DNA of 64,000 bases from Anabaena subtropica FACHB-260 (lineage in GTDB: Bacteria > Cyanobacteriota > Cyanobacteriia > Cyanobacteriales > Nostocaceae), in NCBI RefSeq assembly GCF_014697105.1, contig NZ_JACJRF010000003.1, forward strand, positions 1-64,000, in the 5' to 3' direction. Both the position numbers and the translations under genes were made by a program. Of this stretch, positions 33,534 through 36,825 are shown one piece after another; positions within the stretch are counted from its first letter, which is position 1, and each line of letters begins with the position of its first letter. The notes beneath the pieces were generated by a model that was not told where the DNA came from, did not search any database, and saw only the letters and a list, made by a program, of their open reading frames with translations.

Positions 33534-34520
33534 ATGATGATTCAATTCCGTATTCAGCCAGATAGTGAAATTCCCGCATCAACCCAACTGTTCAACCAAC
33601 TCCGGTTTGCGATCGCTTCTCGGCAATATCCACCCGCATACAAATTGCCAAGCACAAGGGCTTTGGCAATGCAAACGGGTTTACACCGTAATACTATTAG
33701 TAAAGTCTACCGTCAGCTAGAGGAAGACGGTTTTGTCGAAAGTTTGGCTGGTTCAGGGATTTACGTCCGCGCTCAAGGTCATGAAGGTGGTAGTAGGCTA
33801 CAATCGCCAATTCTCACACAACATCCTGAAGCATCAAAAGTTTTGCAGCAAGCACTTGATGAACTGCTAAGTCAAGACTATTCACTCAGCCAAGCACGGG
33901 AGATATTTTTAGCAGAAATTGACTGGCGCTTGCGTTGTAGTGCGCGGGTGTTGGTAGCAGCGCCTGCTCAAGATATGGGTGTTGGGGAATTAATGGCTTA
34001 TGAATTAGAAGAAGAGCTAGAAATACCCGTGCAGATAGTAGCGATAGATGAGTTAGCGTCCGTACTAGATAAAACTACCTCGGCAACTGTCGTCACCAGT
34101 CGCTATTTTATCAATGATGTGGAGGCGATCGCTGCTCCTAAAGCCATCCGTGTAATTCCTCTGGATATCTATGACTACAACAAAGAAATCAACTTGCTGA
34201 AAAATTTAGCCAAAGATAACTGTGTAGGGATAGTCAGCCTCAGTTCAGGAGTTGGTCGCCAAGCAGAAGTCATCCTTCACGGATTGCGGGGTGATGATTT
34301 ATTGGTGATGACTGCCCAACCAAAGGATACTTATAAAATGCAGGCGATCGTCAAGCGGGCTGAAGTGATTATCACCGACCAAGCCTGTTATGCAACTGTA
34401 CAAGCAGCAGTGCAAGCAGCCTCCGAAGATATTATTCGCCCACCAAAACTAATTAAAGTGGAAAATTACATCGGCACAAATTCGATTAACTTGCTTAAAC
34501 GAGAACTGGGATTGGGCTAA
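33534..34520 (+). CDS. GntR-family regulator with a non-canonical C-terminal domain
   Basis: Residues 1-75 form a GntR winged helix (QLFNQLRFAIASRQYPPAYKLPSTRALAMQTGLHRNTISKVYRQLEEDGFV). The remaining 250 residues are not the usual FadR, HutC/UTRA or aminotransferase domain. They contain alpha/beta segments (VTSRYFINDVEAIAAPKAIRVIPLD, then CVGIVSLSSGVGRQAEVILH) that suggest a periplasmic-binding-like or receiver-like sensor fold. GAGG lies just upstream of the tandem ATG codons. It is divergent from the dienelactone hydrolase gene, which it may control. Confidence 0.85.
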   Translation: MMIQFRIQPDSEIPASTQLFNQLRFAIASRQYPPAYKLPSTRALAMQTGLHRNTISKVYRQLEEDGFVESLAGSGIYVRAQGHEGGSRLQSPILTQHPEASKVLQQALDELLSQDYSLSQAREIFLAEIDWRLRCSARVLVAAPAQDMGVGELMAYELEEELEIPVQIVAIDELASVLDKTTSATVVTSRYFINDVEAIAAPKAIRVIPLDIYDYNKEINLLKNLAKDNCVGIVSLSSGVGRQAEVILHGLRGDDLLVMTAQPKDTYKMQAIVKRAEVIITDQACYATVQAAVQAASEDIIRPPKLIKVENYIGTNSINLLKRELGLG

Positions 34521-34637
34521 GAAAGAGTATAGGGACAAAAATTTTTGTTTGTTTTGAAAGCGGAAATTCTCACCATCTTCCCATAACCTTAACCCTAGAG
34601 CTAATTTATGGGTATTACTACGTGATCAGAATCTTCA

Positions 34638-34664
34638 TCCTCACCAGATTCTCTTTGGTGAGGA
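34638..34664 (+). terminator. Hairpin after the GntR gene
   Basis: TCCTCACCA pairs perfectly with TGGTGAGGA over a nine-base loop, about 120 bases past the stop. Only a loose T-rich stretch follows. Confidence 0.5.
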
Positions 34665-34733
34665 CTTTGATTATTTATATAACTATTTTTTATATAACAA
34701 TAATTAAATATTAAAATTACCGTATACTACGAT

Positions 34734-34778
34734 ACACGAAAAAGCGCTCATAGTTTTGCTCCTGGGCGCTTATCGTGT
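34734..34778. terminator. Second hairpin with A/T-flanked stem
   Basis: ACACGA and AAGCGC on the left pair with GCGCTT and CGTGT on the right, with small internal irregularities. An A run lies on the left arm, so on the minus strand it reads like a terminator. Confidence 0.45.
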
Positions 34779-35091
34779 AAGTTTATACCAAATTACTTTT
34801 CTGACGTAACAGTTAAAATCTGCAATCTCCTTTCAGGAAAAGCATTGCAGCGATTGCTTGTAACAAACATTTAAGTAAAGAGGTATCACTCCTTGCACTA
34901 ATTAAGAATATCTTTTTTCAGATAAAAATAAGCCTTTAATAAGTGCCAGTTTATGAACTGACCATAGTCAAAAATCATTCATTGTGCATAGTGTCTAATA
35001 AAACATAATTAAGAGTACTAAGTTATTAATGAATAATTTCATACCAAACTTAATAAGTTCTGCACATAGATGACTCTCTCAAGGTATTCAC

Positions 35092-35190
35092 CATACCAAT
35101 TCAAAATTAAGAAAGCTAGGCATAACAAAGTTTTGGGAGCGTTTATCTGCCACATTCTTTTTTCAAATTGGTATTGAATAATACCAATTT
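35092..35190. repeat. Small MITE-like element with inverted ends
   Basis: ATACCAATTCAAAA (about 35093-35107) is inverted relative to TTCAAATTGGTAT (about 35162-35174), flanking about 55 bases. The right end is itself part of a perfect palindrome: AAATTGGTATT, gaat, AATACCAATTT (35165-35190). Confidence 0.5.
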
Positions 35191-35273
35191 TAGTCAACCT
35201 CACTCAAACAAAATTTTTGTGGCATTTTGGCAACCAAGGCGGTGCTGATGCAGTTTAAATGAGATATCAAGAG

Positions 35274-35434
35274 GGTAACGGGACAGTAGAACTTCAACTA
35301 AGGGATAAATGTTACCGACAATAGCCCTTAGGACGCCCACCCTATCGCCAGTTGTTGATTCAGTGCTGTAGATTAACTCTACATAGATAAAAAGTAAAAT
35401 CTCCGCACTGAATCACCGCTTCACTACAACTGGC
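35274..35434. ncRNA. Candidate structured RNA with nested stems
   Basis: The right half nests three perfect stems. GCCAGTTGT (35347-35355) pairs with ACAACTGGC (35426-35434). TGATTCAGTGC (35356-35366) pairs with GCACTGAATCA (35405-35415). TGTAGA (35367-35372) pairs with TCTACA (35378-35383). The left half has TAAGGG/CCCTTA (35299-35330) and GGTAAC/GTTACC (35274-35316), which interleave and could form a pseudoknot or alternate. Neither a tRNA, tmRNA, RNase P nor SRP motif was seen. The strand of transcription is not known. Confidence 0.45.
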
Positions 35435-35631
35435 TAGAAATCAACCAAAAAATAAATACACTAAAACCAAGAAAAAAGACTAAAGGCTCTGAGGTTAGTA
35501 AGTTTTTACTCAGCACACATTACTTTTTCAATAGTGAACTTGACGATTATTCCTTTAACTCAGTATATTTATTTACTGCCAAGTGCCTAAGAGCAAAATA
35601 GAATATAAAGAAACATCAAATAAGCAAACCT

Positions 35632-36825
35632 ATGTGGTCTTCAGAGGGCAAACCAGCTGATACCGGAGCAAATAGACAACAATTGCTCAACACAACTCCA
35701 ATTAATTGGGAGCAAGAGTCCGAACGTGAGCAAATATTCGAGCTAATTGACAGTCTCTTGTCCTTTGAAGCTTGCCTATATCACCAGATTTTGCCCTTGA
35801 GATTACAAAATAATAGGTTATCGCTAGGTATGGTTAATCCAGAAGATAGCGGAGCATTAGATTATGTAAATCGCATTATGTCCTATATTAAAGGCACAAT
35901 AGAGACTCAAGAAATTACCACTGAAATCCACTGCACCATACTTTCAGCCTACCTTAGCTATAAGAACACATCTCACTTAGAAGTCAAACCAGCAGAACAG
36001 CCAGCAACAGAGATTAATTTAGCAAAGAGTATAAATACTGCATCCTACCTACATCACTCCACAACCCCATCATCAGAAGTACAGCAGTCACATAAATATT
36101 CCGAGCCACAAATAGACGTTTCTCCACTGTCCCATTCTCAGAATTATTCTCAAACTGCCAAAAATCTTTCGGAAGTCAGTACAACACAAGAAGTGCCAAC
36201 AGTTCTGCTGAGTGATGTCACGGTTTTACAAATGCAAGCTCCAGAACTATTCAGCCCGATTGAAGCACTTGTCAATTTACCCTCTAGAAAATTGTTGGAA
36301 GAATTGCTGGGACGAGTTTTAGGTGGGGGAATTGGTCGCTTATATTTGGAAAGACAGCCATATCAAGGAAGAATCATCTGGAGTGATAATGGAGTCTTGC
36401 AGTCTGTATTAGAAAATTTACCTCTCTCTGTTTTCCAAGGAGTACTTAACGAATTGAAGCGTTTTGCTGCACTTCCTCTTAGCACACTTGCAGAACCACA
36501 ACAGATAGAGAAAGAATGCCAATACCAAAACAGCCGTTTATTATTACGCATACGTGTAATGCCCGGAATAAATGGCGAAGAGGCTACATTGCAAGTACTC
36601 AGGGGAGCTGCTTTAAAATTTTATCAACAACAACAGTTAGATCGTCTTAGCCGAGATGTCATAGGTATTTCTCAACAACTCAGCTATAAGTTGCATGAAC
36701 TACAGCAACGCTTACTGCTGAATCCTCACCTCAAATCTGAGCAATCTGAGGCTTTGTCTATGCTCACTCGACTAGTGGAAAACTTAGACCAACAAGTTAA
36801 AATACTGACGGCAAATAATCAGTGA
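35632..36825 (+). CDS. PilB/GspE-like N-terminal protein without the motor ATPase domain
   Basis: The 397-residue protein starts with an MshE/GspE N-terminal-like domain (about 25-125; EACLYHQILPLRLQNNRLSLGMVNPEDSGALDYV). A Ser/Thr/Gln-rich linker follows (125-205). Next is a region like the N2 domain of PilB-type ATPases (about 210-330: GRLYLERQ, then GRIIWSDNGVLQSVLENLPL, LRIRVMPGINGEEATLQVLR). The Walker A, Asp, Walker B and His boxes that should follow are absent, and the protein ends in a helical coiled-coil tail. It may bind pilus-base components or c-di-GMP without hydrolysing ATP. Several families of this kind exist in cyanobacteria, and the assignment is by similarity of layout. Confidence 0.6.
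   Translation: MWSSEGKPADTGANRQQLLNTTPINWEQESEREQIFELIDSLLSFEACLYHQILPLRLQNNRLSLGMVNPEDSGALDYVNRIMSYIKGTIETQEITTEIHCTILSAYLSYKNTSHLEVKPAEQPATEINLAKSINTASYLHHSTTPSSEVQQSHKYSEPQIDVSPLSHSQNYSQTAKNLSEVSTTQEVPTVLLSDVTVLQMQAPELFSPIEALVNLPSRKLLEELLGRVLGGGIGRLYLERQPYQGRIIWSDNGVLQSVLENLPLSVFQGVLNELKRFAALPLSTLAEPQQIEKECQYQNSRLLLRIRVMPGINGEEATLQVLRGAALKFYQQQQLDRLSRDVIGISQQLSYKLHELQQRLLLNPHLKSEQSEALSMLTRLVENLDQQVKILTANNQ

What the first reader, a model, noticed from the sequence alone, without database searches (positions are those of the whole stretch)
35274..35434. Deeply nested stem structure in a non-coding 1.1 kb stretch
Perfect stems of 9, 11 and 6 pairs nest, with a 10-base one-sided bulge, next to two interleaved six-base stems that could form a pseudoknot. 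Chance formation of 26 nested perfect pairs in 90 bases is very unlikely. No known RNA class was recognised. It could be a novel small RNA, a riboswitch-like leader or a folded mobile element.
Basis: seen in the sequence. Interest (0 to 1): 0.7.

Follow-up and report, generated by a model that had tools for sequence, protein, structure and literature searches.

The report
Conserved two-hairpin RNA of Nostoc-type cyanobacteria
The folded stretch is one copy of a seemingly uncatalogued, evolutionarily conserved structured element, most likely a small RNA gene, that many Nostoc-type cyanobacteria carry in one to several copies on chromosomes and large plasmids; what it does is still unknown.

Summary
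The stems of 9, 11 and 6 pairs, the 10-base one-sided bulge and the two interleaved stems are all there, and the + strand folds far better than shuffles (z -4.9, 0 of 200). It is a conserved feature: a covariance model of the large hairpin finds 2 strong matches in the own genome and matches in 94 of 192 family genomes, among them all 13 of the genus, up to 8 per genome. Of 10 matched genomes outside the family, 7 keep the hairpin by eye. Both helices keep pairing through compensatory changes. The proposed pseudoknot is not conserved. Copies are free-standing: the next called gene is on the opposite strand in 35 of 58 and falls into 31 families. A block with promoter-like spacing precedes 74 of 77 copies. 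No Rfam match. Best reading: a trans-acting structured small RNA gene, whose constant hairpin base and bulge probably bind a protein; paralogous lineages are shared between species and some sit on megaplasmids. Transcription, promoter and function are inferred, not shown.

The parts
35221..35232 (+). Conserved block GGCATTTTGGCA (family form GGCA[A/T]TTTGGCA), a possible activator site at about -41
   Evidence: Found by a looser pattern within 190 bases upstream of hairpin 2 in 74 of 77 copies (rechecked); exact form in 71 of 78 full-length copies, but those 78 were chosen by having such a block. Absent by eye in two family copies found later by the model, L151 and L190. The stretch before ATATCA is not structured: median fold z +0.45, 5 of 78 below -2. 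Role inferred.
35254..35260 (+). TTTAAAT, -10-like element
   Evidence: TTTAAT-like hexamer 20-22 bases after the block in 64 of 71 copies; ATATCA 31-33 bases after it in 62 of 71. Promoter role inferred; the sigma-70 scan does not list it.
35264..35463 (+). Inferred RNA (about 170-200 nt); both ends approximate
   Evidence: Extent of conservation in alignments; no transcript data; no terminator-like site listed after it up to 35700.
35272..35343 (+). Hairpin 1: 35272-35276/35339-35343, 35280-35282/35336-35338, 35298-35304/35325-35331
   Evidence: Fold; a hairpin in the same place in most of the 13 folds printed; median z -2.04, below -2 in 35 of 69 copies; in 9 of 78 copies this region is shorter than 45 bases.
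35347..35434 (+). Hairpin 2: basal 9-bp stem, one-sided bulge, 11-bp apical stem
   Evidence: Pairs with changes on both sides: 10 of 20 and 13 of 20; fold z below -2 in 76 of 78 copies.
35416..35425 (+). Conserved 3' bulge CCGCUUCACU (distant form CCGCUUCGCU or close)
   Evidence: CGCTTC in 41 of 44 rows of A1, 20 of which were found by a pattern that contains it; replaced in the plasmid-type lineage; kept in most distant copies by eye.
35367..35383 (+). Small apical hairpin TGTAGA/TCTACA
   Evidence: present by eye only in part of the family.
35274..35316 (+).

Best explanation
The feature is a free-standing gene for a structured small RNA of about 170-200 nt, read left to right on the + strand. 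Shown: a two-hairpin layout with hairpin 2 under pairing selection; several paralogous lineages on chromosomes and plasmids; no link to one downstream gene. Inferred: transcription from its own activator-dependent promoter (GGCA-N4-GGCA block centred near -41, TTTAAAT as -10), and action in trans, with the nearly invariant base of hairpin 2 plus its 10-nt one-sided bulge as the site that binds a protein (or, less likely, a target RNA), while the apical stem of hairpin 2 and hairpin 1 serve as replaceable spacers or variant-specific parts.
For: Compensatory pairs: 10 of 20 pairs and 0 of 500 shuffles reaching the covariation score on 44 distinct copies; 13 of 20 pairs and 0 of 500 on 15 copies that include distant ones, 5 of them among the 9 basal pairs. 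Distribution: 94 of 192 family genomes, 28 of 56 genera, with all 13 genomes of the genus among the rows (genus total). Strand: + folds better than - relative to 25 shuffles each in 61 of 78 copies; in the first five apical pairs G-U outnumbers A-C 19 to 6 over 53 distinct arm pairs. Free-standing: 35 of 58 next called genes on the opposite strand, 31 families. Unstructured upstream block with rigid spacing. Old paralogs: copies of one genome mostly fall in different supported clades shared between species; the two own copies are 78.8% identical.
Against: No transcript was seen; no terminator-like site after the hairpins and no sigma-70 match at the block. Two family copies (L151, L190) and the distant copies lack the block by eye. 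The G-U excess disappears when 8 or 11 positions are counted (33 vs 32; 40 vs 52), where arm lengths vary. 98 of 192 family genomes have no match at E 1e-5, so it is accessory. Some within-genome copies are near-identical (210 of 211 bases), as a mobile repeat would be. Hairpin 1 is only moderately better than shuffles. Ascertainment: copies were found by DNA similarity, by a sequence pattern, or by a model that rewards pairing. No partner protein or target was identified.
Confidence: 0.6

Rival explanations
1. It is a non-autonomous mobile or recombination element whose single-stranded DNA hairpin, not an RNA, is the working form.
For: Up to 8 matches per genome; different loci within one genus (4 of 13 in the window's place); copies on Nostoc megaplasmids; two copies on one contig of G387 identical in 210 of 211 bases, and pairs with equal scores in G191 and G765 (not aligned); distant copies near what I read from translations as a tyrosine recombinase (L175, L176) and a relaxase (L180; no family search run), and on a plasmid annotated with phage-tail genes (L204).
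Against: The inverted repeats that link the two ends of the conserved unit are only A/T-rich six-base matches; of 12 within-genome pairs compared, the 8 between lineages are 71.5-79.4% identical and lineages are shared between species; conservation includes an unstructured upstream stretch of about 50 bases with rigid spacing, which a hairpin substrate would not need; the model found only two weak matches (E 0.13, 0.73) in 74 viral contig loci.
Confidence: 0.2
2. It is the structured 5' leader of the MshEN-domain gene at 35632.
For: Same strand; hairpin 2 ends 197 bases before the gene (coordinates). The same arrangement in G814, G815 and G803.
Against: 13 of 13 genus genomes have the gene but only 4 have the hairpin within 1500 bases upstream; in the other 9 only about the last 100-140 bases before the gene resemble the window. 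Other copies precede unrelated or oppositely oriented genes.
Confidence: 0.06
3. It is the RNA part of an as yet unrecognised nucleoprotein system carried by plasmids and islands, with copies on chromosomes as stable derivatives.
For: Constant base and bulge with a freely varying apical stem; plasmid and mobile-gene neighbourhoods of several lineages.
Against: No gene family lies beside all copies, the largest being near 18 of 75 loci; the protein often upstream in the plasmid lineage has no Pfam match above cut-off and is truncated or missing beside some RNA copies.
Confidence: 0.1

Closest known systems
Known cyanobacterial small RNAs (Yfr1, Yfr2, NsiR1, NsiR8) and 6S RNA
   Same: Intergenic RNAs of heterocyst-forming cyanobacteria, as described in PMC4734099 (abstract, outline and text parts 2-3 of 6 read).
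   Different: No Rfam family matches this sequence at gathering score or convincingly at a relaxed threshold; layout of two hairpins with a 10-nt one-sided bulge. Whether the unread supplementary table of that paper lists a member by coordinate is unknown.
Cyanobacterial repeats: GTAG-tagged REPs (PMC3733652, passages read); Nezha MITE and small dispersed repeats (cited there, otherwise recalled)
   Same: Palindromic, more than one copy in many genomes, intergenic.
   Different: 1-8 copies in the matched family genomes, most of them in diverged lineages, though some are near-identical; about 240 bp with an unstructured upstream block; compensatory changes.
Integron attC sites (recalled)
   Same: Imperfect hairpin with variable apical part, constant base and unpaired bases.
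   Different: The arms carry GTT on the left and AAC on the right, the reverse of the recalled attC order. Integron genes were not searched for.
Guide or scaffold RNAs of mobile systems (IscB/TnpB omega RNA, IS110 bridge RNA; recalled)
   Same: Free-standing folded RNA of 150-200 nt, sometimes on mobile DNA.
   Different: No Rfam match. No gene of such a system was sought by family search; neighbours were read by eye only, and transposase genes, such as IS66 next to L201, do occur near some plasmid copies.

Membership tests
Any Rfam 15 family | Covariance model match at gathering score | tested here: not met
   0 matches in the window; at relaxed E-value 7 matches in 34530-35640, all far below gathering score and none overlapping the two hairpins.
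Structured trans-acting small RNA | Conserved secondary structure with compensatory changes | tested here: met
Structured trans-acting small RNA | Location independent of one downstream gene | tested here: met
   35 of 58 next called genes on the opposite strand, 31 families.
Structured trans-acting small RNA | A discrete transcript | not testable with these tools
   No expression data available here.
Structured trans-acting small RNA | Action on a target or protein in trans | not testable with these tools
   No partner or target identified.
Cis-acting leader or riboswitch | Constant position upstream of same-strand genes of one function | tested here: not met
MITE | Terminal inverted repeats at the element's ends | tested here: not met
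   Inverted repeats linking the two ends are only A/T-rich six-base matches (window copy only).
MITE | Near-identical recent copies in one genome | tested here: inconclusive
   Of 12 within-genome pairs, 8 between lineages are 71.5-79.4% identical and 4 inside the plasmid lineage 88.0-94.1%; one further pair agrees in 210 of 211 bases.
MITE | Precise empty sites with target duplication | tested here: inconclusive
   In 9 of 13 genus genomes only the last 100-140 bases before the next gene resemble the window, so the sites cannot be compared.
Integron attC site | RYYYAAC ... GTTRRRY arms (recalled) | tested here: not met
   Arms read GCCAGTTGT ... ACAACTGGC.

The most novel reading that the evidence does not exclude
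An orphan RNA component of an unknown ribonucleoprotein system of cyanobacterial plasmids and islands, in which a constant hairpin base and bulge bind a protein and the interchangeable apical stem gives each lineage its specificity; chromosomal copies are domesticated members kept for host functions.
Probability: 0.12. Interest if true: 0.8.

Novelty: new member of a known kind. Interest (0 to 1): 0.5.

Why it matters
It adds a structured RNA family that Rfam does not hold, with a working covariance model, which half of the sampled family genomes carry in 1-8 copies. If transcribed and functional, it is a new regulator or RNP component in multicellular, nitrogen-fixing cyanobacteria, and its spread over chromosomes and megaplasmids makes it a handle on how these replicons interact.

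Tried and rejected
Pseudoknot: rejected as the conserved fold because relatives break, merely wobble or lack it; the mutual-information scan of 78 full copies did not list it among its top pairs and was noisy. Pairing of the 5' block with the 3' tail or within itself: suggested by single sequences, not among the top pairs of that scan and not supported by folding of the block. HDV-like or other ribozyme, Y RNA, H/ACA-like, T-loop, sigma-54 promoter: considered from memory only, no fit seen. Phage origin: no match in the phage collection for two queries; five viral contig patterns gave 0, 0, 52, 3 and 27 stretches, 74 loci in all, in which the model found only two weak matches at E 0.13 and 0.73. 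Partner gene: no gene family beside all copies; the protein upstream of many plasmid-type copies has only sub-cut-off Pfam and weak, unnamed PHROG matches.

Dropped before counts: four of the 50 pattern loci, chance hits in other bacteria (of the other 46, 45 show both arms by a simple test and L066 has a changed 5' arm); identical sequences (77 copies, 74 with block, 64 distinct full-length, 64 distinct cores); L075, L138 and copies without block from the full-length set (63 of the 64 plus 15 others give 78); L066, L154 and copies without a recognisable bulge from the arm count. The 44 rows of A1 are a hand-chosen part of the 64 distinct cores; the 15 rows of A4 and the 12 within-genome pairs are also hand-chosen. 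One search timed out without output and was replaced. In one search three of 13 loci (L224, L225, L229) were read on the wrong strand; one search repeats it with all 13 turned correctly, and its result is the one used. Papers: PMC4734099 abstract, outline and text parts 2-3 of 6; PMC3733652 passages; others only as search listings. I saw no description of the element in these; the library holds open-licence papers only and supplements could not be opened.

Full report
WHAT IS THERE. The window belongs to a cyanobacterium related to Nostoc/Anabaena; the named copies closest to this one are from Nostoc parmelioides FACHB-3921 and Anabaena azotica FACHB-119 (86.2% and 86.7% identical). Between a GntR-type regulator gene ending at 34520 and an MshEN-domain gene starting at 35632 lie 1111 bases in which no ORF of 60 aa is listed. 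The + strand folds at -54.2 kcal/mol, z -4.9, and none of 200 shuffles is as good; the minus strand gives z -2.9, also 0 of 200.

A FAMILY. A DNA search found a second, diverged copy in the own genome (C22:52406-52610, three collinear pieces) and matches in 42 of 388 genomes of the order at E up to 0.01, the weakest of which may be chance. A pattern from the 3' half gave 50 contigs in named genomes, 46 of them cyanobacterial; the other four lack the hairpin and are taken as chance. A covariance model R1 of the large hairpin gives: own genome two strong matches, E 8e-29 and 1e-14, and three weak ones at E 0.05 to 1.5; family 94 of 192 genomes at E up to 1e-5, 28 of 56 genera, up to 8 matches per genome, including all 13 genomes of the genus (total); order 52 of 388 at E up to 0.01; class 16 of 388 at E up to 0.001, 14 of them family members and two (G511, G576) weak. 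The genomes of these calls overlap each other and the named set (contig lengths suggest that G815 is N. parmelioides FACHB-3921 and G803 is A. azotica FACHB-119), so the counts must not be added. Some of these copies went into the model and match it by construction.

ANATOMY. Aligned copies show: an upstream block GGCA[A/T]TTTGGCA; a TTTAAT-like hexamer 20-22 bases further in 64 of 71; ATATCA 31-33 bases further in 62 of 71; hairpin 1, variable, its region shorter than 45 bases in 9 of 78; hairpin 2; and an A-rich tail of about 25 bases. The block is found upstream of 74 of 77 copies but is missing by eye in L151 and L190, two family copies found later by the model. Fold z-scores: stretch with the block median +0.45 (5 of 78 below -2), hairpin 1 median -2.04 (35 of 69), hairpin 2 median -4.06 (76 of 78). 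Conservation of the block without structure and with rigid spacing fits a promoter in which a direct repeat centred near -41 replaces the -35 box; this is inference, and the sigma-70 scan does not list it.

COVARIATION. On 44 distinct copies hairpin 2 shows changes on both sides in 10 of 20 pairs; 0 of 500 shuffles reach the covariation score, and sliding the partner by 1-3 columns drops paired cells from 89.5% to 23-46%. Eight of the nine basal pairs never vary there, partly because the search pattern of 20 of the 44 rows fixed their 3' side. On 15 copies that include distant members, 13 of 20 pairs have changes on both sides, 5 of them in the basal stem, for example GCCUGUUGU/ACAACAGGC in L176. 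The model that found the distant copies rewards pairing, so this leans towards the structure. Hairpin 1 can keep its place with different letters, e.g. CUAAGGG/CCCUUAG here and a GCAGGAU/AUCCUGC hairpin in G274. The interleaved stem is not kept.

STRAND. The + strand folds better than its complement, relative to 25 shuffles each, in 61 of 78 copies (median z -3.2 against -2.1; below -2 in 61 and 42 copies). In the first five apical pairs G-U outnumbers A-C 19 to 6 over 53 distinct arm pairs; with 8 or 11 positions the two are about equal (33 vs 32, 40 vs 52), where length changes disturb the register.

CONTEXT. In 58 distinct copies with a called downstream ORF of 80 aa or more (crude ORF calls), 35 lie on the opposite strand, and the ORFs fall into 31 families. 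The gene downstream of the window copy exists in 13 of 13 genomes of the genus, but only four (G000, G814, G815, G803) have the hairpin within 1500 bases upstream of it; in the other nine only about the last 100-140 bases before the gene resemble the window. Precise empty sites therefore could not be shown.

LINEAGES. A tree of 78 copies places the window copy with L100, L076 and L022, and the second own copy in a different lineage with plasmid copies; copies of one genome mostly fall in different well-supported clades shared between species. Of 12 within-genome pairs compared, 8 between lineages are 71.5-79.4% identical and 4 inside the plasmid lineage 88.0-94.1%; two copies on one contig of G387 agree in 210 of 211 bases. 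A 301-base query around a plasmid-type copy matches 14 Nostoc plasmid records of 271 kb to 1.04 Mb, six over at least 80% of the query, the weakest only in parts. Such copies often follow a protein of about 330 aa without a Pfam match above cut-off, which is truncated or missing beside some RNA copies.

DISTANT MEMBERS. Ten genomes of the order outside the family have a match at E up to 0.01. Two (L182, L183) look like a different hairpin and one (L178) is short; the other seven keep hairpin 2 and the bulge as CCGCUNCGCU or a close form and lack the upstream block by eye. Some are near genes that I read, from the translations alone, as a tyrosine recombinase (L175, L176) or relaxase (L180). 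A further match, L204 (E 6e-13), is on a Scytonema plasmid with annotated phage-tail genes.

INTERPRETATION. The best reading is a free-standing structured small RNA gene (0.6). Structure, conservation, copy lineages and independence from neighbours are shown; transcription, promoter and mode of action are inferred. The near-invariant base and bulge of hairpin 2 point to a bound protein; the apical stem changes freely as long as it pairs. Rivals: a DNA hairpin of a mobile element (0.2), an RNA of an unknown nucleoprotein system (0.1), a leader of the next gene (0.06).

NOVELTY. No Rfam match and no description seen in the papers searched, with the limits that the library holds open-licence papers only, that most were seen only as listings, and that supplementary tables could not be opened. 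It is a new family of a known kind, structured bacterial small RNAs.

Noticed in passing
window 34720-34790: A second strong hairpin in the same intergenic stretch (z -5.3 on the + strand); similar sequence found in only 2 of 13 genomes of the genus, own included.
   Followed up: partly
window 34638-34664: Terminator-like hairpin about 118 bases after the end of the GntR-type gene.
   Followed up: partly
L186 4161-4285, L187 1923-2044, L188 751-897, L189 (G274:C2:164048-164176), L135 (G265:C5 near 203264): Copies with a short repeat (containing AGACG) inserted at or beside the bulge of hairpin 2, reminiscent of the small dispersed repeats described for Nostoc (recalled).
   Followed up: no
L138 (G356:C55:7146-7206), L137 (G330:C1:5101671-5101784), L185 4346-4406: A diverged hairpin (arms GCCAGTT / AATCGGC, other bulge); in L137 and L138 it starts 640-720 bases upstream of a normal copy; possibly a further paralogous type.
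   Followed up: partly
L182 and L183 (G152, G032): A different hairpin (GGTGAAGCATTGC ... GCAATGCTTCACC) shared by two genera of one other family.
   Followed up: no
L202 4985-5986 and relatives: Protein of about 330 aa without a Pfam match above cut-off, ending just upstream of the RNA block in many plasmid-type copies.
   Followed up: partly
G387:C61 (5980-6090 and 61619-61729): Two copies in opposite orientation on one 67.7-kb contig that agree in 210 of 211 bases although their upstream flanks differ.
   Followed up: partly
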